A stretch of 55,132 bases of DNA from a virus. The stretch spans positions 1-55,132 of the IMG/VR virus record IMGVR_UViG_3300031369_000003, one strand, 5' to 3'. The notes under the pieces are model-generated. The model was not told the DNA's origin. It saw nothing but the letters and a program-made list of their open reading frames with translations, and searched no databases. Positions within the stretch are counted from its first letter, which is position 1. Each line of letters starts with the position of its first letter. Both the position numbers and the translations under genes were made by a program. This document shows, piece by piece, positions 370 through 52,512 of the stretch.

Positions 370-1053
370 CTATTCAGTATACTTATCCCACCACTCATCT
401 ATATATCTAATATACTCATCCTTAATTTTCCGTCTATCTTCATCCATTTCCAGCCTAGCAATAGCCTCATCCCTGCTGCACTCACAGTATATTAACTCAG
501 CCCCTAAATCATCGGCCAACTTCTCCCGCTTAAATTTATCAGGCAATCCTCCTATGACCCAAGCCGTATTCCACCTACCGAATCTCGTCTTGACGTTATC
601 AATTAGATAATTATAGACGCCTATTATATTGCTTATTAGTTGATCAGGTTTATCATATGCAGGTAACAATGTTATGGCCTCGTATAGTCTATCCATATCA
701 ACTACTATGTCATTGCGTTCCTTGGATTGTATTACATAGCTTGTCTTGCCACTACAAGGACAACCATAGATAATATAGACTTGCTTAGTAACCTTTCCGA
801 ATCGCTTATGCTCTTTGTTATGGCAATCTCTACAGATAAGCTTAACGTTATCAGGATTGAGCGACACCATCACGTCATCAACATTATCAATCGTCAATGC
901 TATAGGTGTATGATGCAGCGTCACATCTTTAGGTGTTGCTATTACCCTACCGCATTGTTCGCAGACAAGGCCGCGTTCGGCAATGATTGACGCTCTAAAT
1001 CTTATCCACTTTTGGCTTGCATAGAATTGTTGTAATATTGCCGCTCTAGCCAT
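370..1053 (-). CDS. HNH endonuclease fused to a P-loop kinase-like domain
   Basis: Two domains in one 227-residue chain. Residues about 28-85 carry an HNH/zinc-finger nuclease pattern: C31xxC34, HH47-48, N66, then C74xxC77H with a final H82. From about residue 90 a second domain starts with Walker A GCPCSGKTS (97-105), followed by a VDMDR acidic segment and a C-terminal Arg/Asp-rich lid-like region, as in small nucleotide or polynucleotide kinases. HNH proteins beside cos and terminase are known to aid terminase cleavage in HK97-like phages of Gram-positive bacteria, so a packaging role is likely. The kinase half is unusual and could act on DNA ends. It follows the TerS-like gene by 3 bases. 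The RBS is weak. Confidence 0.8.
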   Translation of the reverse strand: MARAAILQQFYASQKWIRFRASIIAERGLVCEQCGRVIATPKDVTLHHTPIALTIDNVDDVMVSLNPDNVKLICRDCHNKEHKRFGKVTKQVYIIYGCPCSGKTSYVIQSKERNDIVVDMDRLYEAITLLPAYDKPDQLISNIIGVYNYLIDNVKTRFGRWNTAWVIGGLPDKFKREKLADDLGAELIYCECSRDEAIARLEMDEDRRKIKDEYIRYIDEWWDKYTE

Positions 1054-1056
1054 TGC

Positions 1057-1509
1057 TTACCAATCCTTTGCCGCTTCCATTTGTTTCCTTAGCTGTAATT
1101 CCTGTCGTTTAAAATCAAGCAGCGCCCGGTCGTTAGTATAATGTTCCGAATCTTTATTTTTGAGTAATATCGCAGCCGCCCCGACATCAGCAGGCATATG
1201 CTTTTTGGTTTTCTCAGTATATTTCGTTTCCTTTCCATCCTCGTCTTTGATGTAAGTTTTAATCTCTTCATATTCATATCCTAATGCTCTTTTGGCTAAT
1301 GCGTTTTCCAGCTCAGTAATAAAAACTTCCTTGCCTTTCTTTATGGCCTTAAGAAATTCGGGATATTTAATTTTATACTCGTTTGCCGTATTGATACTAA
1401 TTCCAAGATTTTTCCATATCTGTTCCTCGGTTAGCCCATCACGGCACCATTTTTCAACAAGTAACAATTTATCTTTAACTTGATTCCACTTGCTTTTTCT
1501 GCCCCTCAT
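1057..1509 (-). CDS. Helix-turn-helix protein, terminase-small-subunit-like
   Basis: The N-terminal half has a homeodomain-like HTH (LTEEQIWKNLGISINTANEY, about 30-50) preceded by a basic GRKSKWNQ start. The rest is a charged helix-rich region ending in ADVGAAAILLKNKDS, a layout typical of TerS or transposase-like HTH proteins in Firmicute phages. ATG at 1509 is preferred over the upstream GTG at 1521 because GGGTG lies at proper spacing. It sits directly upstream of the HNH gene, the place a TerS often occupies, yet a second (P27-type) TerS lies at 52521-52850. It may be a regulator or a second DNA-recognition subunit. Confidence 0.7.
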   Translation of the reverse strand: MRGRKSKWNQVKDKLLLVEKWCRDGLTEEQIWKNLGISINTANEYKIKYPEFLKAIKKGKEVFITELENALAKRALGYEYEEIKTYIKDEDGKETKYTEKTKKHMPADVGAAAILLKNKDSEHYTNDRALLDFKRQELQLRKQMEAAKDW

Positions 1510-1525
1510 TTTATCACCCACTTAA

Positions 1526-1714
1526 CTAATTACCCAACGAATTGTAATAAGCTTGCCCATATTGTTTAATGAACTTTTCTTTTCGTGAATTGATCCTATT
1601 GACTACTTTTTGAATTCGTTTTGATTTCAAAACATTATCATTTCGCCATTCATCAGCTTCCCATGCCGCCAAATGCGCAACTAAATAATTTATTCGATTT
1701 GGTTGATAACCCAT
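1526..1714 (-). CDS. Small basic hypothetical protein (62 aa)
   Basis: Not recognised. It is basic in the second half (KSKRIQKVVNRINSRKEKF), consistent with nucleic-acid or virion contact, but there is no defined motif. ATG 1714 is chosen because GGGGTG lies 6-7 bases upstream. It is followed after 16 bases by the TerS-like gene on the same strand and preceded by a 32-codon gene, so it belongs to the left-end operon. Confidence 0.55.
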   Translation of the reverse strand: MGYQPNRINYLVAHLAAWEADEWRNDNVLKSKRIQKVVNRINSRKEKFIKQYGQAYYNSLGN

Positions 1715-1719
1715 TTTAA

Positions 1720-1818
1720 TCACCCCTGTTTATCTTTGTTTTTGATAATCACCAGTTTTATTGCCTCGTTTGGCCTCCAATAAAACAGGTTCCAGGTTGC
1801 TGGTACCGATACTTTCAT
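1720..1818 (-). CDS. Microprotein (32 aa)
   Basis: ATG at 1818 preceded by AGAGGTGG at normal spacing. The frame is open to a TGA at 1720-1722, just upstream of the next gene's RBS. It contains a Trp/Pro-rich start (VPATWNLFYWRP) and a hydrophobic KLVII stretch. No function can be assigned. It is the first gene after the strong terminator at 1871-1898. Confidence 0.4.
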   Translation of the reverse strand: MKVSVPATWNLFYWRPNEAIKLVIIKNKDKQG

Positions 1819-1870: not shown

Positions 1871-1898
1871 AAAAAAACAGCTATCTCTCGATAACTGT
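1871..1898 (-). terminator. Strong intrinsic terminator ending the 1.9-2.3 kb RNA
   Basis: On the minus strand a nine-base-pair stem (ACAGTTATC / GATAGCTGT, one G-T pair) with a GAGA tetraloop is followed by seven T residues. It separates the structured gene-poor segment upstream from the left-end operon (TerS-like, HNH). Confidence 0.85.
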
Positions 1899-2045
1899 CT
1901 AATAATTTTTATAGCGTCGGATCATAGCAATTAGCTCCCCGGCGCGGTGTTTTTTTGAGCAGTGCTGTCTCAAACAGCCATGTTTTTTAATCGCTTTCTC
2001 AGCCGCTACCTTTTTATAGGCAACACGGAAAACCTTCTGCCCAAA
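1899..2045 (-). pseudogene. 48-codon open frame without a start codon
   Basis: The minus frame is open for 48 codons and ends in TAG directly against the terminator stem. The peptide is basic with two Cys-His pairs (HGCLRQHCSKKHR) and ends IAMIRRYKNY, so it looks like the C-terminal part of a small nucleic-acid-binding protein. No ATG, GTG or TTG lies near its beginning and a TAA lies just upstream in frame. It could be a decayed gene, a product of rare initiation, or joined to upstream sequence at RNA level. I do not recognise the family. Confidence 0.4.
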
Positions 2046-2290
2046 TTAAAAGCCCACCAGTTTAAGCCTATACCCTATAATCAATTTGTGGGCGTGTTAA
2101 CCATCGCAAGCCCCTAAGTCGCCTTATGGACTTACCGCTCAATAGTCAATGACGTTTTGAGCACTCACTAGGCGGAGTCAACCGGCCCATTTGTTTCGCC
2201 CCGGCTCGGGACGGATACAATATCTTTTAGAACTGCACAATCACACTATATACCTTAAAACCAGCAAAAACAAGGTTAAACAGTCTCATT
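1899..2290 (-). ncRNA. Candidate structured RNA, unknown class
   Basis: About 270 bases here (2046-2320) hold no plausible gene but contain consecutive stem-loops on the minus strand: 2200-2210 (CCCG/CGGG), 2137-2162 (GCTCAA/TTGAGC), 2115-2134 (TAAGTC/GACTTA) and 2052-2093 (GCCCAC/GTGGGC), ending at the terminator at 1871-1898. A weak promoter-like pair (TTGTTT, 15-base spacer, TATATA; 2247-2273) and a tandem 10-mer lie upstream. GC-rich patches stand out from the AT-rich surroundings. I could not match it to a known riboswitch, intron or HNH-associated RNA. Confidence 0.45.
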
Positions 2291-2301
2291 TAGTCTCATT
2301 T
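2282..2301 (-). repeat. Tandem 10-mer AGTCTCATTT x2
   Basis: Two perfect adjacent copies of AGTCTCATTT (plus-strand reading), just upstream of the weak promoter of the structured RNA and downstream of the terminator of the 2320-2745 gene. The placement suits a regulator-binding site. Confidence 0.6.
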
Positions 2302-2304
2302 TTG

Positions 2305-2329
2305 CAAAAAACAACCGGGTTAATCCCGG
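2305..2329 (-). terminator. Intrinsic terminator with the gene's stop codon in its loop
   Basis: Minus strand: CCGGG-ATTAA-CCCGG hairpin followed by TTGTTTTTT. The TAA of the 2320-2745 gene lies in the loop, so the last codons (Arg-Asp-stop) form the stem. The same hairpin recurs at 3132-3156 with the same arrangement. Confidence 0.85.
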
Positions 2330-2745
2330 CCTCTTAACTCAACGATATACTCCTTGATTTTACTGTCCTCGTCATCACTGAGATAATATTGGCGACGTTT
2401 ACGTCCTGTTGCCGGTCGCCCAGAACCTTCTCGCGAACCGCCCCAAGAGCGTAATATATCATCCTGATAGGCTAACAATAACATTTGCATGGATAATCGT
2501 TTGCGTTGTCTTGCGTATTCGTTTTGTTGGTGACATTCGTCTACAAATTTAGTTTTACTCATATACGTTTCAATTTCTTTGACCTTCTCAATGTACGCTT
2601 GTAAATATTCTTCCTTTTTTTCTTTTGAAAGTCCAATTGACCTGCTAGTTTTCAAATTATTTATCTCAAAATATCCATGTGGGATATCTAGAGACAAAGA
2701 CCAGTTTTTAATCAAGTGCTTCATTAAGCTAATAAATTTTTCCAT
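2320..2745 (-). CDS. DNA-binding-like protein with basic C-terminal motif (141 aa)
   Basis: Residues 1-95 are helical and charged. A Gly/Arg-rich GSREGSGRPATGRKRR segment (about 104-119) leads into YYLSDDEDSKIKEYIVELR, a pattern seen at the end of small phage and plasmid regulators where an AT-hook-like linker precedes a ribbon-helix-helix-like unit. I infer DNA binding. It is the second gene of a two-gene unit driven by the promoter at 3058-3086 and closed by its own terminator. Exact function unknown. Confidence 0.65.
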   Translation of the reverse strand: MEKFISLMKHLIKNWSLSLDIPHGYFEINNLKTSRSIGLSKEKKEEYLQAYIEKVKEIETYMSKTKFVDECHQQNEYARQRKRLSMQMLLLAYQDDILRSWGGSREGSGRPATGRKRRQYYLSDDEDSKIKEYIVELRGRD

Positions 2746-6936: not shown

Positions 6937-7017
6937 TTCCAAATCACCTTTTCCGCCGGGCTTGTGACCGGCTTTGCCGCATTAGCACCGGTTACCCGGT
7001 GTCACTCTGCGATTAAT

Positions 7018-7352: not shown

Positions 7353-7497
7353 TAGTTATTTCAAAGTATTTTCATTTATTTTTTTTATGCCATTTACCTG
7401 CCGTTTTAGTTTACTTCTATATATATACATTTTTGCCTTGCCAAAATCGGCCATCCGGCAACCCGCGACATATTGTCATTACCACCACCATCACCAG

Positions 7498-7545
<48 letters not shown>

Positions 7546-7549
7546 AAAT

Positions 7550-7578
7550 TTGACGCATAAACGTATATATGATATAAT
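7550..7578 (+). promoter_or_regulatory. Promoter P1 (ribbon-helix-helix gene)
   Basis: -35 TTGACG (7550-7555), spacer exactly 17 bases containing ATAAACGTATA, -10 TATAAT (7573-7578). It shares the -35, spacer length and ACGTATA element with P2 and P3. Confidence 0.85.
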
Positions 7579-8921: not shown

Positions 8922-8946
8922 AAAAACCGCCTTTCGGCGGTCTTTT
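8922..8946. terminator. Bidirectional intrinsic terminator between convergent units
   Basis: ACCGCC-TTTC-GGCGGT stem followed by CTTTT on the plus strand and by TTTTTA on the minus strand. It separates the plus-strand cluster from the end of the long leftward early operon. Confidence 0.9.
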
Positions 8947-9472
8947 ATTGTATTAGTAGTTGCATTTTTTGTAGGGCGGAATCTCGTTTTCTAAAACATT
9001 CTGCGCGACTGTAATGCACCATCCCTGCTATCTTGCTCCAGTTATATCCTTTTATATAGTAGTACTCCACAATGGTTTTTTCCTCCGCCGTTAACTGATC
9101 GAGCATAATGTCAATCACTAAAATATCATTTTGTACCCTGCTCAAATCGCACTTTAGCTTTTTAATCGTCGCATCTTGGTCTAACAGTTTTTGCACTTTT
9201 TTGAGTACCGGATCGCTTGTCCCTGTCCCATGCGGCATACCGTCATTGTTTGCCGCAGCTAAAGCTGATCGTCGATTCAGTTCCTCCTCTAGTCTTTTGC
9301 TAATAATATTTTTGGCAGTCAACATATCATTGTAAGCCCTTAGAGTTGCCTTGATATCCATGCCGCTGTCAAGCTCAACCATGATACAATTATCCATTTT
9401 AACATTGAGGTTACCGTCAATGTCTGCCATAAATCGCCGCTCTATTAGATTATATAATTTGGTTTTTATCAT
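8945..9472 (-). CDS. Sigma-70 region 4-like late transcription regulator (RinA/ArpU type)
   Basis: 175 residues. The C-terminal 60 carry a sigma-region-4-like HTH: LTAEEKTIVEYYYIKGYNWS then KIAGMVHYSRAECFRKRDSAL. The N-terminal part is a helical/coiled-coil region (KNIISKRLEEELNRR). Proteins of this layout at the end of an early operon activate late genes in Firmicute phages. ATG 9472 (RBS GGAGGG) is chosen over upstream in-frame codons. It is the last gene of the operon, exactly where such a switch is expected. Confidence 0.75.
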   Translation of the reverse strand: MIKTKLYNLIERRFMADIDGNLNVKMDNCIMVELDSGMDIKATLRAYNDMLTAKNIISKRLEEELNRRSALAAANNDGMPHGTGTSDPVLKKVQKLLDQDATIKKLKCDLSRVQNDILVIDIMLDQLTAEEKTIVEYYYIKGYNWSKIAGMVHYSRAECFRKRDSALQKMQLLIQ

Positions 9473-9683
9473 CTTTGCCCTCCTTGACATTTGTAATTAT
9501 ATTTTTAAAAATAGTCAACATTTCTATCAGCGTTTCGTGAAATTCGCGAGTGATTATAAATGACGTGGCGATAAAACACCCAAACAATCCAAACCAAAAC
9601 AATATAAATCCGTATAATCCTCCCCAGAAAACGACTCCAAACGATACGGCCATAGTTGATAATAATAGTAAAAAGTAATACAT
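9450..9683 (-). CDS. Small membrane protein, two TM helices (77 aa)
   Basis: Two hydrophobic spans (about residues 3-24 and 26-46) followed by a charged tail (TNVKEGKDDKNQII). It overlaps the late regulator by 23 bases and shares a TAATG junction with the upstream microprotein. Topology and role unknown. Confidence 0.6.
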   Translation of the reverse strand: MYYFLLLLSTMAVSFGVVFWGGLYGFILFWFGLFGCFIATSFIITREFHETLIEMLTIFKNIITNVKEGKDDKNQII

Positions 9684-33841: not shown

Positions 33842-33906
33842 GTCCCCATGCTTACCCATGTGGATGATTGGAAGGTGTTTCCCGTTAGCGCGGGGACACC
33901 TTTTAA
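33842..33906 (+). ncRNA. Candidate small RNA 3 (~65 nt)
   Basis: Predicted start G33842 begins GTCCCC, which can pair with GGGGAC at 33892-33897. The competing 3' hairpin AAGGTGT / ACACCTT (33872-33902) followed by TTTTAATT is a terminator. No open frame. It is opposite to late transcription between the lysis genes and the 33953 gene. Confidence 0.6.
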
Positions 33907-33910
33907 TTAC

Positions 33911-33937
33911 AAAATAAAACCCGGTTAATCAACCGGG
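33911..33937 (-). terminator. Terminator after the tail-fibre region
   Basis: Minus strand CCCGGTT / AACCGGG stem followed by TTTTATTTT, downstream of the 33953 gene. Lysis genes lie beyond it, so they need read-through, antitermination or their own promoter. Confidence 0.85.
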
Positions 33938-33952
33938 ATAAAACGCTAAAGC

Positions 33953-34078
33953 CTATTCTGCCACCTCCGGACACTCTCCGGCGTGGTGGACGCTCCCGTC
34001 ACTCTCCGTCACATACGCCACCCCCTGCGCAGTGTCAATCTCCATTTCCTGATTGCATAGACTACAAATTACTATCAT
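33953..34078 (-). CDS. Microprotein with CxxC (41 aa)
   Basis: GAGGTG RBS. MIVICSLCNQEMEIDTAQGV starts with a CSLC pair, and HHAGEC follows. Many phages have such a half zinc-ribbon protein after the tail-fibre genes. Unknown. Confidence 0.55.
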   Translation of the reverse strand: MIVICSLCNQEMEIDTAQGVAYVTESDGSVHHAGECPEVAE

Positions 34079-34083: not shown

Positions 34084-35325
34084 TCACCTCACATTTTGAT
34101 TATAAATTGGTGTCGGGTCGAAAAGTTGTACTGTGTTGGCGTCGTTGGGCATTAAGTTATCAAAATCGGGATCGGCTGTCCGGGCAATGTCGGATAGACG
34201 ATGTTTGCCAAAACGGGTGTTGGCAAAATTATATCCAGTTAGACTTCCCATGTAACCATAGATATTAAATCCCGATGGTAAATTAGGCGTTGATATTGTA
34301 CCCGTCGCAACTTTTGTACATGTTGACAAGTTCCAAAGCTCAATTTTCGCCTCAATCACTGCCCATGGAATTTTATAATAATAAAAATCATTCGGAGTTA
34401 ATGAATCAGCAATAGAAACTTGTGTCGCAACACCAGCGTCATTATACGTTCTTAAATACCAAAGGCTACTGGCGGAGTCATGATTCAAACGCATGGCGAG
34501 ATCCGATGTACTATCGGTTTTAAAAATACTAAATATATTGGCAAAACTACCAACACCTATTCTTTTAACAACATCCGTAATCTCCACAACCCCTTCAATC
34601 GTCCCCTCTGACACCGATAGTCCTGCCGTCGGCATTGTCAGGGGTTCGGCGGCGCGGGGAGAATCCGGCATACAAAATGAGGTTGGGTAAGCTTTTTGCG
34701 AGAGTTTTAGATCATCAGCGTATATTGATACGTTTTGGATGTTTTGTGCTATATTAATTCTCATAAAACATTGCGTAGCGCCACTAGGAATTGTAATGGT
34801 TACGACCAACTTTTGCCATGTATCAAAAGCGGTTGGAGATAAACTTTTTGATTCAGTATACGATGATACATAATAAACAGCATTTAAATATATATTAGAC
34901 AATGTAATACCACTGGTGCTCGGAACATATACCCATGCTGAAAATGTATATACTAATCCGGCAGTCAAAGTATTTAGAGATGTTGTCTCTCCCATTTGAT
35001 AATATCTATTTGAAAAACTGGTGGTACCGGTTGTCAATTTTAAAGACTTCGAACCAAAATTATAATAATCTGTACTTGATACTGAAATTAAATATGCGTC
35101 GTATCCATAGCCATTAAGTTTTGGTTTGTTAAATTCACAATCCGGATTTATGATTAAATTACTTGTCGCCTCCTCCACCCATGTGACCCATCCAACTCCA
35201 TCCACATATTCTAGCCTCGGCAATCCCGGCAACGCAATCCTGCCCAGTGAATCAATAGCCTCTGAGTTGCGGCTAAACGTCGCGCCCGTTATAGTTGTGC
35301 GTCTCGGTGGTGATAATATCCTCAT
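34084..35325 (-). CDS. Tail fibre / receptor-binding protein with lectin-like domains
   Basis: 413 residues. Short N-terminal ATFSRNSEA segment, then a CBM_4/9-like beta-sandwich (FGSKSLKLTTGTTSFSNRYY ... YTFSAWVYVPSTSG ... DTWQKLVVTITIPSGATQCF), then a concanavalin-like C-terminal domain (FANIFSIFKTDSTSDLAMRL). Carbohydrate-binding adhesin, likely the host-recognition protein. Located last in the tail module. Confidence 0.75.
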   Translation of the reverse strand: MRILSPPRRTTITGATFSRNSEAIDSLGRIALPGLPRLEYVDGVGWVTWVEEATSNLIINPDCEFNKPKLNGYGYDAYLISVSSTDYYNFGSKSLKLTTGTTSFSNRYYQMGETTSLNTLTAGLVYTFSAWVYVPSTSGITLSNIYLNAVYYVSSYTESKSLSPTAFDTWQKLVVTITIPSGATQCFMRINIAQNIQNVSIYADDLKLSQKAYPTSFCMPDSPRAAEPLTMPTAGLSVSEGTIEGVVEITDVVKRIGVGSFANIFSIFKTDSTSDLAMRLNHDSASSLWYLRTYNDAGVATQVSIADSLTPNDFYYYKIPWAVIEAKIELWNLSTCTKVATGTISTPNLPSGFNIYGYMGSLTGYNFANTRFGKHRLSDIARTADPDFDNLMPNDANTVQLFDPTPIYNQNVR

Positions 35326-35334
35326 GGTCTCCTC

Positions 35335-36420
35335 CTATTCTGCCGCCGAATAAACGACTAATTCAAAAGCACCCTGAGCAGTAGCACCATTAGCATAAAT
35401 CAACCGCTGGTATCTGCTGTAAAAAGGCTCGTCGAATGACTGCGGCGTACTTGCGACAACGGAAATACTACGCGTCCTGCGCCAGTTAGCGCCATCTTTG
35501 CTGTGTTCGAAGTGCAACTCCCCGGCCTGGTCGGCGTAGACCGTTCCGGTTACGCGTTTGAGAGTTAGCCCGTCGATTGCCGATGAGGTATAAGTTCCGC
35601 TGCCGGTTATTGGCGTAGTATAGTCAATCTCGGCATGACGATAGATTGCTTGCTTGTCCGTGGGGATAACGATTCCTACGCTACCAATTTTAAAAACGCC
35701 CGGATCGGTTTCGGTCAGGATCTCAGTACCCGAGGAATTTTTGACTACCACGCCGTTTGTCGTTCCCGGTGTGGTTTGGTCAATCCCCACCTTGCCAATG
35801 ATATTAGTTCCCGCCGCGATAACTACAGCATTCAGTGTGTCCACAATATCGGTGATCGTCTTATAACTAGTACCCAAGATAGCATCACGCAAGACAGTCA
35901 GAGCTATATCAAGATTGGCTAACGACGTATTGCCAGTTGTTTGCAGTGTCGCCGTTGCAGGGTCACTGCTGAGTTTAGTAAGCACTGCTGTTAGTGTGGT
36001 CTGCGTAGCGAAATCTTTCCCGGCAATAGTCGCAAGCGATGTGTTCCCAATTGTTTGTAAATCAGCGGTAGCAGGAGCAGCGATCATTTTTGCTAATATC
36101 GCCGCTAATGTGGTCTGTGTCGCCGGATCGCTCGACAACTTAGCCAAAATCGATGTCAACCTCGTAACCGTTTCGGTCAAAGTCTCCTGAGAAGCTGGAT
36201 TGACTGGGATTTTGCTTGAGTCATATATACCCACCGGGTACGGAGCCGGGTTGGTGGCATCTGGCACCCGTTTATATTGGTGCGTGGTCTCGTCATATAC
36301 AAGCGGCCCGACCTCTGTCGCCCGAGCGGGAGTTTCGGTCTGCTGAATTGCTACCGTGGGTTGTTTATCTGCAGTATACACTGCATTGACGGTCATTTGG
36401 TCTGATGCTATAATCGACAT
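35335..36420 (-). CDS. Tail fibre protein with imperfect internal repeats (361 aa)
   Basis: Residues about 85-180 contain repeats around LSSDPATxTTL, LQTxGNTSLA and FATQTTLTAVL, predicting a trimeric fibrous stalk. The C-terminal ~110 residues (YTTPITGSGTYTSSAIDGLT ... HFEHSKDGANWRRTRS) form a beta-sandwich head. The N-terminal YKRVPDATNPAPYPVGI is probably the attachment part. Confidence 0.7.
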   Translation of the reverse strand: MSIIASDQMTVNAVYTADKQPTVAIQQTETPARATEVGPLVYDETTHQYKRVPDATNPAPYPVGIYDSSKIPVNPASQETLTETVTRLTSILAKLSSDPATQTTLAAILAKMIAAPATADLQTIGNTSLATIAGKDFATQTTLTAVLTKLSSDPATATLQTTGNTSLANLDIALTVLRDAILGTSYKTITDIVDTLNAVVIAAGTNIIGKVGIDQTTPGTTNGVVVKNSSGTEILTETDPGVFKIGSVGIVIPTDKQAIYRHAEIDYTTPITGSGTYTSSAIDGLTLKRVTGTVYADQAGELHFEHSKDGANWRRTRSISVVASTPQSFDEPFYSRYQRLIYANGATAQGAFELVVYSAAE

Positions 36421-36431
36421 TTAAATTCACC

Positions 36432-36839
36432 TCACAAAATAATTACATGAACCATTGGATCTAAATAAGCCCATACGTCTTCGGTACCAGAAGCGGCGGT
36501 CTGTATATATATAGTTGCCGTTTCTGAGCCAGTAATATCTATTATGTACTCGCCAAATCTGTTTACAACTGCATAAGTTGTCCCAAATCTTAACCTTGCT
36601 TGGCCATTTTCAACTATTATTTTCGCAAATACCCGCGCTGTTACAATGTCGGATGGTAATTGTACAGCAAATGATGCAACGTCTATATAACTTGTTTCTT
36701 CGCCTCCCCATCCCGTTATCCCAGGTATATATTGTATTAACAACCTGTTTATTTCAGTGTTTTTTTCAATCCGGTTAAAATCATTCGGCCCCGGATTGTC
36801 TGCTGCAATCCAATCTGTTTTAGGCGTTTCCCAAGCCAT
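36432..36839 (-). CDS. Baseplate-associated protein (135 aa)
   Basis: Start MAWETPKTDWIAADNPGPND FNRIEKN is a conserved opening of baseplate/fibre-connector proteins in Firmicute siphophages; the rest is a small beta domain. ATG 36839 overlaps the TGA of the upstream gene (TGATG). Confidence 0.65.
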   Translation of the reverse strand: MAWETPKTDWIAADNPGPNDFNRIEKNTEINRLLIQYIPGITGWGGEETSYIDVASFAVQLPSDIVTARVFAKIIVENGQARLRFGTTYAVVNRFGEYIIDITGSETATIYIQTAASGTEDVWAYLDPMVHVIIL

Positions 36840-38806
36840 CAAATTACCTTCTTTCCTTTTGTATCTCCATCAAGCTCCCCGCCATCCCAATTTAATTGAT
36901 TCGATATAACCCAAAAGTCAGCCGTAGTTGTTTTAGAGTCTGGAACATTGATTCGGTCACCCAACATCAAAGCAGGATTTCCGCGCCAGGTTAATTCCAG
37001 ATCTCGACGTGGGTTTTTGGATAACGTCAGGCATTTATCCGCGATTTTTTGGGCCATTTCCTTAGTTTGGATAAGCGGATTATCATCGATTTCATACGAT
37101 TTTTGTCTGTTTTCCTGGATACTGTCTATATCTGATGTGACGATATCAATCTTATTTTTGACCGATAAAACTGTTCCGGTAACGGCGATTAAAAATGTCC
37201 CTGCTACCGTCGCGCCGGATACGGTTATATCAGCGCCATACGGCTTATAGACCGTCGCTGATATCGTAAGCCCTGCCGGTAATGTCCCGCCACTAATAGC
37301 CTCTAGAGACGCATTGCAATTAATTGCAATGCTATCCCAACTAACTGTAACTGTTTTGGTTTCTCCATCCATTATGCTCTCGGGGCTATCACTGTTGGTT
37401 GTGTAAATATTGCTTGTCTCGTCTGCCGCGACCAGCGGCTGGGTTGTAATCGTAACATAGTTGGCCATATCGGTATAATTCGCGGGGTTATCTTTGTTAA
37501 AATAATCATCCCATGTAATCGTCGCATTGACGGCAGTTTTCTCATTCTCTAAATAAGACGGCCCTTCAATTCTTAAAATGTTGCCGCGATCCATATAGCA
37601 TTGACCAAGGCAAGCCTCGACGATCATCCGCAAGCATTCGCGGTGCGATTGATCATTCGGTTTAGCAATAGCGCAGCCCCAAGCAACTGAATAATCCTTT
37701 AATTCTTCGTCAACCCAATATTCTACTATTCTCAACCCTGCGTCGGTTAAAACATCAACCGCCAAGTCATATAGCGTGGTATCCTGCAAAAACTCATCAG
37801 CGGAATAATAAGTATCATCGAGCAATTGCAGCCGATCGTGTGCAGTCGTATCAGCAGTAACATCATCCTCGGGTACCGTCCAATCCTGAGTGTAAAAAAC
37901 TCCCAACGGAATCCATTCTGCAACGCTCCCTGATACTCTTTTGCTTGCCATACCAAGCATAGCAAGCCTGACTTCCCCGGTCACAAGCCCGAGCCAAGCC
38001 CTTACCCGCCGATTAGGCTTAACCATTTGATACAGCTTAGAGTCAATGTTCCCCGCGTCAAACTTACGGTCGCGGTTAAACAGCGATATATCTAGCTCAT
38101 TGCTGCTAATATTGCCGATCGGGAGACTACCATTTGAAATATCGCGCTCCTCAAGCAAGCTAATATTAAATAGATCGTCTCCTTCATAAGTTTCAGACAT
38201 ATTTGTAAAAAACTCCAAGATTTTAGCTTGTCGCCCATCATGACTCCATTTGATAATTTCCAATACCATTTTTTTAACATTGCTAACCTTTGTAATTGTA
38301 GTATTCCAAATAACGCTGATATTCCCAGTTGTTATCTCAGTATGCAACAAAACATCAGAAGCGTCATAAAGATAAATGTTAAAGTCGACCGGGTATTCCT
38401 CGCGCATGGAATCGCCTACCACTTTTAATGCCGACACAACCCGCGCAGAAAATTCAACAGTCAGCGCCGGATACGGCTCGGCAAAAACCCCATCAACTCC
38501 AGCACCTCCGGCCAAACTTTTTCCCCACCAACCCATTTCATTGTTGACCGCCGCGTCCGCCGTGTCAGGACACAAATAATATGTACCGTCCAATTTCCAA
38601 GAACCATCTAAATTTGCCCATTTGTGTGTTGCCTCTTCGACATCGTTAACCACTTGCGCGTTTTGCGTTATATATGCATTTTCGTTTGCGCTGACCACTA
38701 TTGACCCATCAAGACCGGCAACACTATAGTCAATAGTAACCTTGCCCAATACCTGTCGCTTCGGAGCTAAAACTTTTTCTTGATATCGAGTCGATGTTTC
38801 ATACAT
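36839..38806 (-). CDS. Tail-tip / baseplate hub protein (655 aa)
   Basis: Begins YETSTRYQEKVLAPKRQVLG KVTIDY, with FNRDRKFDAGN and hub-like beta domains, a central Ig-like stretch (TVSWDSIAINCNASLEAISG) and a C-terminal LTWRGNPALMLGDRINVPDS, as in tail-associated proteins of clostridial phages. It lacks recognisable lytic motifs. It follows the distal tail gene by one base. Confidence 0.7.
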   Translation of the reverse strand: MYETSTRYQEKVLAPKRQVLGKVTIDYSVAGLDGSIVVSANENAYITQNAQVVNDVEEATHKWANLDGSWKLDGTYYLCPDTADAAVNNEMGWWGKSLAGGAGVDGVFAEPYPALTVEFSARVVSALKVVGDSMREEYPVDFNIYLYDASDVLLHTEITTGNISVIWNTTITKVSNVKKMVLEIIKWSHDGRQAKILEFFTNMSETYEGDDLFNISLLEERDISNGSLPIGNISSNELDISLFNRDRKFDAGNIDSKLYQMVKPNRRVRAWLGLVTGEVRLAMLGMASKRVSGSVAEWIPLGVFYTQDWTVPEDDVTADTTAHDRLQLLDDTYYSADEFLQDTTLYDLAVDVLTDAGLRIVEYWVDEELKDYSVAWGCAIAKPNDQSHRECLRMIVEACLGQCYMDRGNILRIEGPSYLENEKTAVNATITWDDYFNKDNPANYTDMANYVTITTQPLVAADETSNIYTTNSDSPESIMDGETKTVTVSWDSIAINCNASLEAISGGTLPAGLTISATVYKPYGADITVSGATVAGTFLIAVTGTVLSVKNKIDIVTSDIDSIQENRQKSYEIDDNPLIQTKEMAQKIADKCLTLSKNPRRDLELTWRGNPALMLGDRINVPDSKTTTADFWVISNQLNWDGGELDGDTKGKKVI

Positions 38807-39163
38807 TTAGACCGCCTCCAGATTGATTGACACGCCAGACCATAACCATCCTTCGGCAATAGACTCACGTGTTCCGGGCGTCAAAGTCATTTTTACGGTT
38901 GTTGTAATCTCAGCGCCTAGTCTATCCATGACTGTCATGCTGAGGTTTTCAGCAAGGTTATAAAGTCCCTCAATTATCTCGTGATCGTCTCCGGTCATGT
39001 ACTCATAATCGATTTGATAGTTGACATATCGACGGATGATTTCTTCAACCAGCTTGCCAGACGCAACGCGCTTGGTAACGCCATCCTCGACAAGTGTCGG
39101 CGTGACTGTTCGAGAACCGGAAGGGAGAGGGGTGGTGTTTAGATAGATATCTCCTGGCACCAT
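38807..39163 (-). CDS. Distal tail-region protein (118 aa)
   Basis: Short protein with SRTVTPTLVEDGVTKRVASG KLVEEIIRRYVNYQIDYEYM and a beta-rich end; placed between tape measure/moron genes and the hub gene. Size is small for a full Dit, so it may be a Dit-like or tail-tip adapter. Confidence 0.55.
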   Translation of the reverse strand: MVPGDIYLNTTPLPSGSRTVTPTLVEDGVTKRVASGKLVEEIIRRYVNYQIDYEYMTGDDHEIIEGLYNLAENLSMTVMDRLGAEITTTVKMTLTPGTRESIAEGWLWSGVSINLEAV

Positions 39164-39195
39164 GGAATCACCTCATTTCAGGTAATAAAAATCAC

Positions 39196-39285
39196 TTGAT
39201 TGAAAATAGTAATAAATGGCTAAAGAAATTAACAATATATTCCGAATATAAAAAGGCATACCTGAATTTGAAGAAAGAAGGTTGA
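39196..39285 (+). CDS. Possible plus-strand microprotein (29 aa)
   Basis: TTG 39196, no clear RBS. LIENSNKWLKKLTIYSEYKK AYLNLKKEG is basic and helical. It is on the strand opposite to the tail operon and directly precedes the broken gene at 39282-39498. Doubtful. Confidence 0.3.
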   Translation: MIENSNKWLKKLTIYSEYKKAYLNLKKEG

Positions 39286-39498
39286 AAAACGGAAAACAAA
39301 GTTATTAAACAAAAAATTATCGACCATTGCCCGATATCAAACAAAGATCAGACTATTGATATTAGATATGCCGAAAACAAATCGAACAACGGCGGGAAAT
39401 TCACAAAACTTTTTTGGAGCGAATGCGATAATGAGGATGCTTGCCCATCTAATCACAATTGCCCTTTAAAGCAGAATATTCCGAAAACACTAGACTAA
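39282..39498 (+). pseudogene. Frameshifted plus-strand Cys-rich gene inside the tail operon
   Basis: GAAGG precedes TTG 39282, but that frame stops after 8 codons. Removing one A from the following A5 run would join it to a 70-codon frame ending at 39498 with CPISNKDQT ... SECDNEDACPSNHNCPLK, a clear small Cys-rich protein. Either a real one-base insertion, a homopolymer sequencing error, or transcript slippage. Its strand is opposite to every neighbour. Confidence 0.5.
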
Positions 39499-39911
39499 TC
39501 ACGTTTCCATTCTCCCGTTAAATTGGGAAGCGTAATTGATGTTGGCATTTTGTCAATAGGCGTGTTTTGCAAATACTCAATTAACTTGTCAACGCGCTTT
39601 TGAGCTATTGCCGAATTTGAATCATTAATGGGATTATTAAGATCAAATCTCAGGTATGCATTTTTATCCTCCTCGTTGTATATCTCAGGTAGATTCTCAT
39701 TAAGATATTTTGCCGCTTTTTCAAGTCCTTTTTTGACATATTCAGGTTCACTGTTAAAAGGGTTCACCCGTCCGATTTCTAATTGATCACCATTACCCTT
39801 GTTGACTGCCGTTATGACAAATCCAAAAACACTTAGCATCGTATTGACCAAACATAGCATTCCGGCCTCGCGAAATTTTTCCACACTTACATCATCAAAT
39901 CTTGTAATCAT
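39495..39911 (-). CDS. Hypothetical moron-like protein (138 aa)
   Basis: ATG 39911. ITRFDDVSVEKFREAGMLCL, then a soluble helical protein with a hydrophobic AGMLCLVNTMLSVFGFVITA segment that could associate with membrane. It overlaps the tail of the broken plus-strand gene by 4 bases. Preceded by a terminator, so it has separate expression or read-through. Unrecognised. Confidence 0.55.
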   Translation of the reverse strand: MITRFDDVSVEKFREAGMLCLVNTMLSVFGFVITAVNKGNGDQLEIGRVNPFNSEPEYVKKGLEKAAKYLNENLPEIYNEEDKNAYLRFDLNNPINDSNSAIAQKRVDKLIEYLQNTPIDKMPTSITLPNLTGEWKRD

Positions 39912-39946
39912 AATTTTCCACTGCCTTTCATTGTTTTTTGGGGCAA

Positions 39947-39966
39947 TAAAAAGAGCCTTGCGGCTC
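39947..39966 (-). terminator. Terminator after the 39982 membrane gene
   Basis: Minus strand GAGCC-GCAA-GGCTC followed by TTTTTATT. It isolates the membrane-protein gene from downstream tail genes. Confidence 0.85.
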
Positions 39967-39981
39967 AAAAGTTTTCAAATA

Positions 39982-40494
39982 TCAATCATCCCACCCAAAA
40001 ACACAATTACCTTCGCCCTCCGGCGTATCGGCATATATATAAAGCTTTTTGGGTTTTTGAGTAAATGGGTTATATCTTGTCCCGTCACTTTTTGCAAACT
40101 GCGCCGAACCAACCGAATAGGTTTCTCCTGATTTTATTTTGTGATAAGTCAATTTATAGCCGCCAATAACATTGTCTATATATAGGCTAACATTATCCCA
40201 ATCATAAGCATCAGTGTTGGTGATTACAAACTGTGTCCCGGTAAACTTGGTTATGCCGTTTAATTTTAATTCTTTAGGTTCAACTTGATCTTTTGAGCTC
40301 ATAAGACTTCCAATTGCCCCAAGCATGATCATAAACATAATAAATCCAAAACACCCAAGCCCGGCCGCCAAATTCGTTTGTTTTTGTTTATTCTTTTTAA
40401 TTTGTTCCTGTTCTCTTTGAATTGTTTGCTGTGCTTCCAGCCTCGCCTTTTCTTCGGCAAATATCTTCTGCCGCTCTTCAGGGGTTAACTCCAT
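39982..40494 (-). CDS. Single-span membrane protein, moron-like (170 aa)
   Basis: Charged Gln/Lys-rich cytoplasmic helix (1-45), one membrane helix (AAGLGCFGFIMFMIMLGAIG, about 48-67), then an extracytoplasmic beta domain (KELKLNGITKFTGTQFVITN TDAYDW). It resembles host-type membrane proteins rather than tail proteins. It sits in the tail operon with its own terminator and an RBS hairpin (40500-40548), suggesting tight separate control. Possibly lysogenic conversion or superinfection exclusion. Confidence 0.6.
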   Translation of the reverse strand: MELTPEERQKIFAEEKARLEAQQTIQREQEQIKKNKQKQTNLAAGLGCFGFIMFMIMLGAIGSLMSSKDQVEPKELKLNGITKFTGTQFVITNTDAYDWDNVSLYIDNVIGGYKLTYHKIKSGETYSVGSAQFAKSDGTRYNPFTQKPKKLYIYADTPEGEGNCVFGWDD

Positions 40495-40499
40495 AACAA

Positions 40500-40548
40500 A
40501 ATTCCTCCTTGTTACTTTTCTGGATATTTCGGCAACAAGGAGGGAATT
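40500..40548 (-). promoter_or_regulatory. Hairpin that sequesters the RBS of the 39982 gene
   Basis: Minus strand AATTCCCTCCTTGTT pairs with AACAAGGAGGAATT (14 bp, one bulge, 20-base loop). The 3' arm holds the AAGGAGG Shine-Dalgarno (40504-40510). On a read-through transcript from the tape measure gene the RBS would be masked. Confidence 0.7.
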
Positions 40549-40551
40549 CCT

Positions 40552-43140: not shown

Positions 43141-43765
43141 TATCGGTGTACCTCCCTATTGTTGCCATAATGTTTTTTAAAAGCTTCTAAATCTGGACAA
43201 TTGAAGTCTTGACCCGGAATACGCTCGCCCTGTGTTAATACTTCATCCATACATTCAGCCAACATGATAAATTGATTTTCAGAAATTTCATCGGTAAAAT
43301 ATCGGACTGCTTGCCCATAATATGCGCATAATTTTGCAATAACCCTGCAAAAATTAAGGTCTACTTTTCCGCCGCCTTTTGCAGGGCGAGAACGTTTTTT
43401 AGGTGTTCCTCTTCTTTTTCCTTCGTTGGTTCCAATATAAAGTTTAATATTTGTGCAAATGTCTCATTGGTTAGGCAACGTTTTATCCATAATTTAGTAA
43501 ATATAGGTCGGAATGATTTAAAAACATCGGCGACAATGTTGAGAGAAATCTGAGATAATAATTTTTGATCTTTATTAACCCACGCGCCAACAAATGCATA
43601 ATACTTTTGGCGCATTTGCTGGGCTTTCCGAATAGAAGGGTTAGGAATAGTAATGACGATCTCTTTGACAGGTAAAAAGGGCAGGAATCGTCTCCTGCCC
43701 TCCGCCGGTATGATTATTTGACGTGGTTCGTCCATTACGGTGTCGATTGTTAAAATATTTGCCAT
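43140..43765 (-). CDS. Tail assembly chaperone, long product by -1 frameshift (G/GT type)
   Basis: The short product is the 134-residue frame at 43361-43765. At 43394-43400 the zero frame reads CTA AAA AAC, giving the slippery heptamer A-AAA-AAC; the -1 frame is open from there to a TAA at 43140-43142, adding about 85 residues (…PAKGGGKVDLNFCRVIAKLC and onward to NNREVHR). Such paired products bind the tape measure protein during tail assembly; only the short form is in frame at its own stop. Position between major tail and tape measure genes is diagnostic. Confidence 0.85.
43361..43765 (-). CDS. Tail assembly chaperone, short product (134 aa)
   Basis: Zero-frame protein, N-terminus shared with the long form (MANILTIDTVMDEPRQIIIP), C-terminal ALQKAAEK. 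ATG 43765. Helical, as in gpG-like proteins. Confidence 0.85.
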   Translation of the reverse strand: MANILTIDTVMDEPRQIIIPAEGRRRFLPFLPVKEIVITIPNPSIRKAQQMRQKYYAFVGAWVNKDQKLLSQISLNIVADVFKSFRPIFTKLWIKRCLTNETFAQILNFILEPTKEKEEEHLKNVLALQKAAEK

Positions 43766-43776
43766 GATTGATCTCC

Positions 43777-44586
43777 TTATGCCACCGATTGTTCGTCATA
43801 AATTTCGAAAAGTTGATCGCCAACGGTTCGAACGGCATCCTTGTAACCGGTAAATTTAATAGTATTTTCCCACGCTTTACCTTCGTCATCAGACGGGAAA
43901 TCAATACTAATTCCTTCCGAATTTTGGGCCTTATAAACAGTAATTCGGAAAATTTTATCGTTTTCATCGGTGTTTGTAAGACGAACTATTTTCGAATTAA
44001 CGGTTACATTACCACCCGAAGTCATTACAACTGCCGCATTTGGAGTATAATTGTAAATAATTGTTATGATTTGCGATTCCGTTGTAACTGTTGCGGAATC
44101 AATAATATAAATTCCATATTCTCCTGCCGTATTTTGACCAATATAATAATCAGTATCGGCAACTAACAATCCATTGGTGCTTCCCGTGACAGAGGTCGGA
44201 GTGATTATTGTGCCAGCTCCATTTTGATTTGAAAATTTAATAAATTTATTATAAGACCATGCGCCCGATGCTATGCTTTGGCTATGTCCAGTAACCAAAG
44301 TGCCGGCTATAGTTGAATACTCATCAATGCCACCACGCGCCTGTTGCAAGATGTTAAGATCAATTTCCAGCATTGTAAAATCGACCTCACAGGTCTGCTC
44401 TTTGACAAGAGTTTTAATCAGCCCACCATTGTCACTAATCAAGTCTTGCTTAGTCATTTTTTCAGAAAACTTTGCAGCGTTACCGGTTCCCAACGATACT
44501 AAACTACCAATAGTATCGCCAACTTCAACTTTAACACTACCGACCCTAATTGTTTTAACACTTATTACCGGTTGTTGATAAGGCAT
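43777..44586 (-). CDS. Major tail (tube) protein (269 aa)
   Basis: Acidic beta-rich protein with VGSVKVEVGDTIGSLVSLGT at the start, an Ig-like insertion in the middle (NKFIKFSNQNGAGTIITPTS VTGST) and YKAQNSEGISIDFPSDDEGK near the end. Position after tail terminator and before chaperones fits the tube protein. Confidence 0.82.
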   Translation of the reverse strand: MPYQQPVISVKTIRVGSVKVEVGDTIGSLVSLGTGNAAKFSEKMTKQDLISDNGGLIKTLVKEQTCEVDFTMLEIDLNILQQARGGIDEYSTIAGTLVTGHSQSIASGAWSYNKFIKFSNQNGAGTIITPTSVTGSTNGLLVADTDYYIGQNTAGEYGIYIIDSATVTTESQIITIIYNYTPNAAVVMTSGGNVTVNSKIVRLTNTDENDKIFRITVYKAQNSEGISIDFPSDDEGKAWENTIKFTGYKDAVRTVGDQLFEIYDEQSVA

Positions 44587-44612
44587 TTTTTATTCCTCCT
44601 AATTTTTTTTGC

Positions 44613-44637
44613 AATAAAAAAGTATCCCTGAAGGGCA
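44613..44637 (-). terminator. Weak terminator or attenuator before the major tail gene
   Basis: Minus strand short hairpin (CCCT/AGGG plus flanking pairs) followed by TTTTTTATT between the tail terminator gene and the major tail gene. Likely partial, allowing read-through. Confidence 0.5.
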
Positions 44638-45021
44638 CTACGTGCGATATAAAACCATTACATCCGTTTGAGCTTTCCAAAGTTTGGTGTCTGATTCATA
44701 AATTATTTGTGTATCTTGATATGCTCCCATTTCAATTGTCACGCCATCCAAAACCCCGGAAAACCCATCCAGGGCTTCATAGGTCAATTCTCCCATTAAC
44801 CTAGTCTCACCATATTTCAGTGAAAAACTATCGATCTGTAATCGCGGTCTTGGACGTCCGAGACGCTTCATGTCAGGTGGATCGGAAATCAAAAATAAGC
44901 TTTGATATGGAGCAATCCACTTTTGATTTGCTAACCCTTGTTGACAATGGCCACCATGAATTGCTTTTAGTGCTGCATAATCGGCTAGATAAGCCGCTAT
45001 GATTGATTCAATTGGTTTCAT
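44638..45021 (-). CDS. Tail terminator / completion protein (127 aa)
   Basis: Gene order and size (127 aa) between the gp10-like and major tail genes match the tail-completion/terminator gene of HK97-like phages. Sequence has GELTYEALDGFSGVLDGVTI and a beta-rich end. Confidence 0.7.
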   Translation of the reverse strand: MKPIESIIAAYLADYAALKAIHGGHCQQGLANQKWIAPYQSLFLISDPPDMKRLGRPRPRLQIDSFSLKYGETRLMGELTYEALDGFSGVLDGVTIEMGAYQDTQIIYESDTKLWKAQTDVMVLYRT

Positions 45022-46119: not shown

Positions 46120-46132
46120 TTAAATCACATCC

Positions 46133-47104: not shown

Positions 47105-47117
47105 ATTTTTATTCCTC

Positions 47118-47324: not shown

Positions 47325-47344
47325 GATATCCCTCCATTGAATTA

Positions 47345-50775: not shown

Positions 50776-52512
50776 TCAGCTATTGACATATGCCATAAAC
50801 TCACTACGATTTTGTAAATAAATATATTCGCAGTTGATAAGTGTTGCGGCTCCATCGATCTTTTTCTCCTTGTTACCACCGGCCCTGACCGGTAAAATTA
50901 ATCCGCGCTTATCGATATCTATCCCAACATTTGACAGACACCACTCGTCAATTGGATTATTATTTGTGACGATTAATTTATTTCTTAGATCAGATTCCAG
51001 CAGACTAAATGGAGCGGATAAAGCTTCTCGCTTTTGTGGGACTCTCGTCATACATTCCTGATCGACATCATCGAATATTTCTGACATACTTTTAATCCAA
51101 TATTTTGCTAATGCTTCATCATAACCAATTTTATACATCCTAATCTTATATAAATTTACAATTTCGATAAACCATTTTGTAATAAGATCAAAGTCATTTG
51201 TCGCACCAGACGAAACGGTAATTAATCCTTGCTGTTTCCATTTGCGGTAATCCTTACCATCATCTTTAGCATCTAATTTATCCTCCGGAATAAAATATCT
51301 TTGTAAGAAATACTTTCGGTTGTCTCCCGGACGCATTAGCATGATCCGCGCCGATGCAAGGTCAATTGACATAGCCAGATCAACGCTGCCGATACCAAAA
51401 CAGCCCTTTAGATCATTCGGGTCGAATGTTTCTAGACAAGTATATAACTCAGGGCTAAAAGCTGCGTTAGAGGCGTTCTGCTTAATGTTAAAATCTTTTG
51501 CAAGCACAAAAACCCTAGTCGCCATATTGGTTTTTGCTTCCTCAACCATGCCCCGCAAAAAAGACCATTTTTTAATAATCCCTAAACCTGGATTTGACTT
51601 AACCCATGTTTTTTCATCCTGCCATATTTCGGTTTCAGAATCCTGCGTATAAAGCCAGATTAACCAACGCGGTCTTTCGAGCTCGCCAGCCAAAACCTGC
51701 CGGGCCTCCTTGAGACGGCGATCTAAATATCCATCATTTGTAAATCCCTCGGTTGTTGTTTCTCCAAATATTGGTTCGTCTTGAGTTGATAAAGCCTGTC
51801 TAATCGGTGTTACCGAAGAATCATCTTTTAATTCATGCCCTTCATCAACATAACCGGCTTTAATATTTTTACCTTCTTTGGCTCCGGTCTTGGCAGATAT
51901 TTTACGAATATTTCCCTTGTTGGCATAGCTGAATTTACCCTTTTTGCGCACCCTTTTAGGGTTCCCCATAAAAATCCCTTTAATAGTTTTGCGGCTAATC
52001 CTTTCTAGTGAAGGGCTTTCTTCCCGCATGGAATTACAGGCTGAAAATGATAAATCCGCTTGTTCATAGTCGTTGCTACTATATAAAACCTTCGTTCCAA
52101 ATTCCCCACAAAAAAACTCCGCCAAACCAAGGGCAGATGCTAAAGGCGTTTTTCCGTTTTTGCGTCCGATCAAAAGCGTAAATTCTTGATATTTTCTAAC
52201 CCATTTTTCAATTTCGTCATCATAAATTTTAAAAGAATAAAACGCCTCGACAAATGCTTTTTGAAATAGAGCTAAAATAAAAGGCTTTCCAGCAAATGGA
52301 GCTTCGGAATGTTTGCATTTTGTTTCAATAAATTTAATATATTTGCGCCCACTGCCAAACTCAATTTTTATATTCGGATCGTCAAAATGTTTAAGCAACA
52401 TATCCAACTGCTGCATAAGTTCATGGCCAATTAGGATCTCGCCGGATTTACATTTTTCGATATACTCTAAAAGGTGGGAGTCGGGATATTGTTTTCTTAA
52501 TTCTTGTATCAA
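50776..52512 (-). CDS. Terminase large subunit (Terminase_1 family, 578 aa)
   Basis: Walker A GRKNGKT (116-122), Walker B YVDEGHE (221-227), coupling motif ETTTEG, and a C-terminal RuvC-like nuclease (GSVDLAMSIDLASARIMLM; YDEALAKYW; KKIDGAATLI). Complete. Partners are the P27-type small subunit upstream and probably the HNH protein. Confidence 0.95.
   Translation of the reverse strand: MIQELRKQYPDSHLLEYIEKCKSGEILIGHELMQQLDMLLKHFDDPNIKIEFGSGRKYIKFIETKCKHSEAPFAGKPFILALFQKAFVEAFYSFKIYDDEIEKWVRKYQEFTLLIGRKNGKTPLASALGLAEFFCGEFGTKVLYSSNDYEQADLSFSACNSMREESPSLERISRKTIKGIFMGNPKRVRKKGKFSYANKGNIRKISAKTGAKEGKNIKAGYVDEGHELKDDSSVTPIRQALSTQDEPIFGETTTEGFTNDGYLDRRLKEARQVLAGELERPRWLIWLYTQDSETEIWQDEKTWVKSNPGLGIIKKWSFLRGMVEEAKTNMATRVFVLAKDFNIKQNASNAAFSPELYTCLETFDPNDLKGCFGIGSVDLAMSIDLASARIMLMRPGDNRKYFLQRYFIPEDKLDAKDDGKDYRKWKQQGLITVSSGATNDFDLITKWFIEIVNLYKIRMYKIGYDEALAKYWIKSMSEIFDDVDQECMTRVPQKREALSAPFSLLESDLRNKLIVTNNNPIDEWCLSNVGIDIDKRGLILPVRAGGNKEKKIDGAATLINCEYIYLQNRSEFMAYVNS

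What the first reader, a model, noticed from the sequence alone, without database searches (positions are those of the whole stretch)
1871..2301. Gene-free structured transcript ending in a strong terminator
Seen: about 400 bases with at least four consecutive hairpins, unusually GC-rich patches, a terminator (9 bp + T7) and a start-less Cys/His-rich open frame at its 3' end. It sits just upstream of the TerS-like/HNH packaging genes. I could not fit it to a named riboswitch, HEARO/omega RNA or intron. Inference: a new phage RNA (packaging RNA, regulatory leader or ribozyme) or a decayed gene plus leader.
Basis: partly seen in the sequence, partly recalled or inferred. Interest (0 to 1): 0.7.

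Follow-up and report, generated by a model that had tools for sequence, protein, structure and literature searches.

The report
Phage late-operon leader RNA, antiterminator candidate
Just in front of this bacterial virus's packaging genes lies a roughly 350-base structured RNA followed by a stop signal for transcription; because related viruses carry a known "ignore the stop signals" RNA (EAR) in exactly this place, this RNA probably does the same job although its sequence matches no known family.

Summary
Bases 2250-1904 (-) fold into a compact RNA: an 8-bp helix closes two hairpins, a branched domain and a long rod. The fold is more extreme than 292 same-length tiles of the window. It lies between two intrinsic terminators (2331-2313 and 1900-1875). 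Directly downstream are TerS and the HNH-kinase gene, the head of the late operon. The start-less Cys/His frame looks like chance. No Rfam family, GenBank phage, plasmid or any of about 280 fetched loci holds a sequence relative, so covariation could not be tested.

The decisive clue came from relatives. In the same slot (regulator gene, 11-bp-period repeats, structured RNA, terminator, late operon) three related phage contigs carry EAR (RF01735), the known processive antitermination RNA; a fourth carries a diverged EAR and shares the window's repeat, TGAGAC-N4/5-TGAGAC, found nowhere else in 2.4 Mb. The window RNA itself fails the EAR model.

Best reading: a leader RNA at the late promoter that makes RNA polymerase pass its own terminator, like EAR, put and canT, but of unassigned sequence class. 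This mechanism is inferred, not shown (about 0.5). EAR heading phage late operons is itself noteworthy.

The parts
2313..2331 (-). Intrinsic terminator of the upstream gene (2320-2745); insulates the RNA from upstream transcription
2281..2302 (-). Direct repeat AAATGAGACT x2 (period 10 bp); candidate binding site at the late promoter; the tandem TGAGAC recurs only in L235, upstream of its EAR
2246..2251 (-). TATAGT, possible -10 element (poor -35, TTGTTT, 17 bp upstream). It overlaps the 5' strand of the closing helix, so the true start site is uncertain
   Evidence: sequence; the scan found no consensus promoter on this strand here
1904..2250 (-). Structured RNA, candidate late-operon antitermination RNA
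2243..2250 (-). 5' strand of closing helix P1 (TATAGTGT), pairs with 1917-1910 (ACGCTATA); P = 0.97
2215..2238 (-). Hairpin A
2197..2213 (-). GC-rich hairpin B
2089..2189 (-). Branched domain C, including a long hairpin with a GCGA (GNRA) loop at 2135-2106
1920..2082 (-). Domain D, long imperfect rod with two terminal hairpins
1899..2045 (-). Start-less 48-codon Cys/His-rich frame; judged chance
1875..1900 (-). Intrinsic terminator between the RNA and the late genes (11 pairs, GAGA loop, T7)
1788..1807 (-). Second terminator-like hairpin, inside the first small ORF
1720..1818 (-). 32-aa ORF with a good ribosome-binding site (GAGGTGGT), first gene after the terminator
   Evidence: sequence
1526..1723 (-). 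65-aa ORF, no informative family
1057..1521 (-). Terminase small subunit (phrog_309)
370..1053 (-). HNH endonuclease-kinase fusion (phrog_4581)
50776..52512 (-). Terminase large subunit; late operon continues here if the contig is a permuted circle (inferred)
8945..9490 (-). Late-regulator-like protein with a sigma region 4-like domain (phrog_36); candidate activator of the late promoter

Best explanation
The region is the leader of the phage late operon. Transcription starts at an activator-dependent late promoter near the TGAGAC repeats. [quoted passage not shown] The modified polymerase passes the terminator at 1900-1875, and possibly later ones, and transcribes the terminase, capsid and tail genes. 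Spurious transcripts without the RNA stop at the terminator. SHOWN computationally: the stable fold, the flanking terminators, the position, and an EAR antitermination RNA in the same slot of related phages. INFERRED: transcription, the late promoter, cis action, antitermination, and the activator. The RNA is not EAR by sequence or model.
For: (1) Structured RNA: z -4.3 to -5.5, well-defined ensemble, much stronger on the minus strand. (2) It fills the gap between two terminators, directly before the small ORFs, TerS and HNH-kinase genes; no consensus promoter was found between its terminator and the first gene. (3) In three phage contigs that share the HNH-kinase late operon, the same slot (regulator gene, repeats, RNA, terminator, late operon) holds EAR, RF01735, at 107, 91 and 80 bits (gathering score 42). 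A fourth, L235, holds a diverged EAR: Rfam 19.6 bits, and 87 bits by a model that includes it. Terminators after the RNA: L245 3400-3419, L273 2938-2963, L235 3401-3421, and L252 2465-2486 after a non-EAR structured region with z -4.8. (4) The tandem TGAGAC-N4/5-TGAGAC occurs at only two loci in 2.44 Mb: before the window RNA and before the L235 EAR, same orientation; the aligned block ATGAGACTAAA-TGAGAC was reached by 4 of 2000 shuffles. (5) 11-bp-period arrays precede the slot RNAs in L235, L245, L267, L273 (22-bp there) and L252 (at most 3 of 2000 shuffles each); the window shows a weaker 10-bp period, 25 of 2000. (6) canT of Tn916, a proven cis antitermination RNA, was active as a 452-nt structured fragment (PMC11658703).
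Against: No sequence relative, hence no covariation test. The EAR model fails on the window (best 3.1 bits with filters off; no Rfam hit). Most relatives with the same late operon have no structured RNA in the gap, so the element is not universal. Terminators are not enriched in the late region as a whole (19 against 19.4 expected), so 'processive' is unsupported beyond the first terminator. The window's regulator is not alongside the RNA and is not similar to L235's. The motif in point 4 was chosen after it was seen.
Confidence: 0.5

Rival explanations
1. A leader whose terminator is overcome by a phage protein, as at lambda pR'-tR' with Q, or by a switch in the RNA. The short terminated transcript is a by-product and the fold is a recognition or attenuation element, not the antiterminator itself.
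For: Same anatomy: promoter region, leader, terminator, late genes. A relative's regulator in this position (L202) weakly matches a family annotated as anti-termination protein Q-like (phrog_79, E 5.6e-5).
Against: Relatives use an RNA-type antiterminator (EAR) in the slot. No alternative antiterminator hairpin overlapping the 1900-1875 stem is evident; that stem folds independently of the upstream domain.
Confidence: 0.17
2. An independent trans-acting or scaffold RNA gene (stable phage ncRNA) with its own promoter and terminator; the late operon has a separate promoter.
For: Paired ends (P1, P = 0.97) and an own terminator give a complete gene unit of about 375 nt.
Against: No consensus promoter on this strand in 1850-2420. 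The analogous slot in relatives is cis-regulatory by family (EAR).
Confidence: 0.17
3. A DNA packaging (pac/cos) region or a packaging RNA used with terminase.
For: It lies directly upstream of the terS module, and repeats are present.
Against: Structure is much stronger on one strand (z -4.6 against -2.5) and is bounded by terminators. No evidence that this terminase type uses a packaging RNA (own knowledge).
Confidence: 0.06
4. A decayed gene or neutral spacer whose fold is accidental.
For: No homologue; open frame without a start; two tiles elsewhere in the window also reach 200-nt z of about -5.
Against: Most extreme of 292 tiles at full length; 6-13 stops in every frame and no protein relative; terminators on both sides.
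Confidence: 0.1

Closest known systems
EAR / epsC RNA (Rfam RF01735), B. subtilis eps operon
   Same: Structured RNA near the start of a long operon, upstream of intrinsic terminators; occupies the same slot in related phages L245, L267, L273 and L235.
   Different: About 120 nt; no sequence or model match to the window RNA. Described in Bacillales for exopolysaccharide operons (PMC2864571; PMC7858274).
canT RNA of Tn916
   Same: Cis-acting structured RNA (452-nt fragment tested) between promoter and terminator of a mobile-element operon (PMC11658703).
   Different: Conjugative element. No blastn match of the window RNA in the PLSDB plasmid collection, but a direct comparison with canT was not made.
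conAn2 (with protein ConAn1) of plasmid pLS20
   Same: RNA component of processive antitermination at the start of a long operon in Gram-positive mobile DNA (PMC8955417).
   Different: Works with a protein partner; none identified here; direct comparison not made.
put RNA of phage HK022
   Same: Phage RNA that acts in cis, without a phage protein, to suppress termination (PMC9378689 abstract; PMC11658703).
   Different: Acts on early genes of a lambdoid phage; much shorter (own knowledge).
lambda pR' leader (6S RNA, tR') with Q
   Same: Leader plus terminator gating the late operon (own knowledge).
   Different: Protein-based, Q bound at DNA; leader about half as long (own knowledge).

Membership tests
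EAR / epsC (RF01735) | Score above Rfam gathering threshold (42 bits) | tested here: not met
   No hit in the window nor in 1700-2500 at E <= 10
EAR / epsC (RF01735) | Match to a model of the phage EAR versions (L245, L267, L273, L235) | tested here: not met
   Best 3.1 bits with filters off
EAR / epsC (RF01735) | Promotes read-through of terminators in cis | not testable with these tools
   needs a reporter assay
Processive antitermination RNA (functional kind) | Structured RNA near the start of a long operon, upstream of an intrinsic terminator | tested here: met
   same slot as EAR in relatives
Processive antitermination RNA (functional kind) | Further intrinsic terminators inside the operon | tested here: inconclusive
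   some hairpins (49312-49295, 39966-39953, 1807-1788), but no excess over shuffles in 35200-55132
Processive antitermination RNA (functional kind) | Antitermination in cis and over several terminators | not testable with these tools
   needs experiment
Known Rfam families (riboswitches, HEARO/omega, ROOL/GOLLD, group I/II introns, RNase P, ribozymes) | Covariance-model match | tested here: not met
   ARAGORN finds no tRNA or tmRNA
Protein-coding gene (intact or decayed) | Open frame with start, or protein homology | tested here: not met

The most novel reading that the evidence does not exclude
A new structural class of processive antitermination RNA that controls the late genes of a Firmicutes-type phage, filling a slot in which related phages use EAR; late expression in this phage group would be gated by exchangeable RNA antiterminators.
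Probability: 0.4. Interest if true: 0.78.

Novelty: new variant of a known kind. Interest (0 to 1): 0.62.

Why it matters
Only a handful of RNAs are known to make RNA polymerase ignore terminators (put, EAR, canT; conAn2 with a protein). If the reading is right, phages of this group gate their late genes with RNA antiterminators and swap one RNA class for another in the same slot. That gives a natural series for learning what the fold must do to polymerase. Independently, EAR at the head of phage late operons would place a biofilm-operon element in phages. I know of no earlier report, but only open-access papers could be searched.

Tried and rejected
Rfam at gathering score and at E <= 10: nothing but a chance miRNA. 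tRNA/tmRNA: none. Homologues of the RNA: blastn in 50,697 phages and in the plasmid collection, an exact DNA pattern in viral contigs, blastn/nhmmer over up to 277 loci fetched through TerS, TerL, HNH-kinase and PAPS reductase, and a single-sequence covariance model R1 of domains A-C over about 2.2 Mb of loci and 91 genomes: none. R1 did find itself, as it must, so it had no independent positive control. Near-full-length blastn over 82 genomes gave two weak hits (E 1e-3 and 7e-3, 57 and 30 nt); the better lies beside a GGDEF gene, not a phage locus, and is judged chance. Start-less frame as a protein: no relative. L067/L069: a mutually similar non-coding gap between regulator and TerS (72% over aligned columns) looked like a family of this RNA, but is only weakly structured (z about -2) and not similar to the window RNA. 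EAR membership of the window RNA: rejected. The tRNA-like bits after EAR in L245 and in L252 look like an att site next to an integrase gene, not RNA structure (my inference).

Full report
WHAT IS THERE. The window is a phage record of 55,132 bases from a viral-contig collection, with nearly all genes on the minus strand. The flagged stretch is a gap between the gene at 2745-2320 and a run of packaging genes: a 32-aa ORF (1818-1720), a 65-aa ORF (1723-1526), TerS (1521-1057, phrog_309) and an HNH endonuclease-kinase fusion (1053-370, phrog_4581). TerL lies at 52512-50776; the late operon continues there if the record is a circular permutation, which I infer. Read on the minus strand, the gap contains: a terminator at 2331-2313; a tandem repeat AAATGAGACT/AAATGAGACT at 2302-2281; a TATAGT at 2251-2246; a folded region 2250-1904; a terminator at 1900-1875 with seven T; then about 55 bases to the first start codon with its ribosome-binding site.

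IS THE FOLD MORE THAN CHANCE? For 1868-2310 the minus strand has z = -4.56 and the plus strand -2.5. Without the terminator, 1904-2260 has z = -4.26 with 0 of 400 shuffles as good; most helices have P > 0.9 and the mean certainty per base is 0.92. Against 292 same-length tiles of the same genome the 376-nt unit is the most extreme (-5.5 against a best of -4.0), with the caveat that its borders were chosen after seeing the fold. At 200 nt the region is unremarkable (-2.2 to -2.6) and two tiles elsewhere reach about -5, so thermodynamics alone would not settle it. The shape is that of a self-contained RNA: an 8-bp helix joins the two ends (2250-2243 with 1917-1910) around hairpins A and B, a branched domain C with a GNRA-capped hairpin, and a long rod D.

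WHAT IT IS NOT. No Rfam family reaches even E = 1 in the stretch and there is no tRNA or tmRNA. The start-less Cys/His frame (2045-1899) has no relative in Pfam, PHROGs, phages or viral contigs. All six frames carry 6-13 stops, and equally long open frames occur on the opposite strand. I treat it as chance.

HOMOLOGUES. None was found for the RNA: phages and plasmids, loci around TerS, TerL, HNH-kinase and PAPS reductase relatives by blastn/nhmmer and by a covariance model of domains A-C, and sampled genomes. So there is no covariation evidence. An empty answer in these samples does not prove absence elsewhere.

THE CLUE FROM THE SLOT. I folded the gaps upstream of the late operon in 121 loci that share the HNH-kinase gene. 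Most are unstructured, but a few match the window in size and stability. Three of them, L273 2650-2759, L245 3167-3281 and L267 3203-3315, contain EAR (Rfam epsC, RF01735) at 107, 91 and 80 bits against a gathering score of 42. A fourth, L235 3147-3265, is a diverged EAR: 19.6 bits by Rfam, nhmmer E = 8e-12 to L245, and 87 bits by my own four-sequence model, which includes it. An EAR-like hit also occurs in L056 (33.9 bits). EAR is the cis-acting RNA of the B. subtilis eps operon that is needed to transcribe through distal terminators and also antiterminates foreign ones (PMC7858274). In these phages the order is: a small regulator gene (phrog_21810 in L235 and L267; similar-looking ORFs in L245, L273 and L252), an array of repeats with an 11-bp period, the RNA, an intrinsic terminator, an integrase-like gene, TerS and HNH-kinase. 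L252 has the same order with a structured region (z -4.8) that is not EAR. The L267 terminator (CCGCCCTAAGGGCGG-TTTTTATTTT) was below my scan's 7-pair limit but is plain in the sequence.

LINK TO THE WINDOW. The window has the same order: repeats, RNA, terminator, TerS/HNH-kinase. A specific sequence link exists: TGAGAC-N4/5-TGAGAC occurs at only two loci in 2.44 Mb of window plus loci, namely before the window RNA and before the L235 EAR, in the same orientation; chance expectation was about 0.6 for the whole set. The local alignment ATGAGACTAAA-TGAGAC was matched by 4 of 2000 shuffles. The window repeat has a 10-bp rather than an 11-bp period and only two clear copies (25 of 2000 shuffles), and the motif was picked after seeing it, so I weigh this as moderate support.

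MEMBERSHIP AND FUNCTION KEPT APART. The window RNA is not an EAR by any test I could run: no Rfam hit, and at most 3.1 bits with the phage EAR model with filters off. What is claimed is that it works like one: an RNA made at the late promoter that renders RNA polymerase resistant to the terminator right after it. Comparable anatomy is proven for canT of Tn916, tested as a 452-nt structured fragment that acts in cis on several terminators (PMC11658703), and described for conAn2 of pLS20 (PMC8955417) and put of HK022 (PMC9378689). A further signature, intrinsic terminators inside the operon (PMC8955417), is not met statistically here (19 against 19.4 expected), though a few good hairpins exist (49312-49295, 39966-39953, 1807-1788). 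So processivity is open.

MECHANISM, STEP BY STEP. Late promoter near the repeats, perhaps driven by the phrog_36 regulator at 9490-8945, which has a weak sigma region 4 match: inferred. RNA folds as predicted: computed, not probed. RNA acts on polymerase in cis: inferred from the slot. Terminator 1900-1875 stops unmodified polymerase: predicted. The start site is unresolved, because the TATAGT that could be a -10 overlaps the 5' strand of P1; one of the two must be wrong or the start lies upstream.

VERDICT. Real structured leader, most probably an antitermination RNA of unassigned class (0.5). Alternatives are a protein-gated leader (0.17), an independent ncRNA (0.17), decay or accident (0.1) and a packaging element (0.06). 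I score interest 0.62: the RNA lacks homologues and an experiment, but the slot, and EAR at the head of phage late operons, make a specific, cheap test possible.

Noticed in passing
L273 2650-2759, L245 3167-3281, L267 3203-3315, L235 3147-3265 (also L056 1318-1428): EAR (RF01735) processive antitermination RNAs, and diverged versions, in phage contigs; in the first four they head the late/packaging operon and are followed by an intrinsic terminator. No blastn relative among 50,697 GenBank phages for two of them.
   Followed up: yes
L235 3050-3110, L245 3070-3125, L267 3080-3140, L273 2555-2610, L252 2165-2210: Arrays of about five repeats with an 11-bp period and phage-specific hexamers (TGAGAC, TGACGG, TGCGTG) between a small regulator gene and the slot RNA; probably binding sites of the late activator.
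   Followed up: partly
L252 2163-2493: Another structured region (z -4.8) with a terminator in the same late-operon slot that does not match EAR.
   Followed up: partly
L067 5601-6014 (and a Soehngenia MAG, L088) and L069 1380-1850: A non-coding gap, about 72% similar over aligned columns, between a phrog_36-type regulator (in L067) and TerS; only weakly structured, function unknown.
   Followed up: partly
window 6956-7011 (-): Twister-P5 ribozyme (62.5 bits, gathering 37.6) in a phage intergenic stretch.
   Followed up: no
window 33851-34050 (+): Very stable fold (z -5.1 at 200 nt) in an intergenic stretch between 33779 and 34084, with GC-rich hairpins and a bidirectional-looking terminator (sequence).
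   Followed up: no
window 3165-3097 and 2340-2271 (-): The terminator CCGGGATTAACCCGG plus flank is duplicated (73% over 73 nt) downstream of two different genes.
   Followed up: no
window 7430-7560: Long trinucleotide tract that reads as poly-Ser, poly-Thr or poly-Leu in different frames and strands.
   Followed up: no
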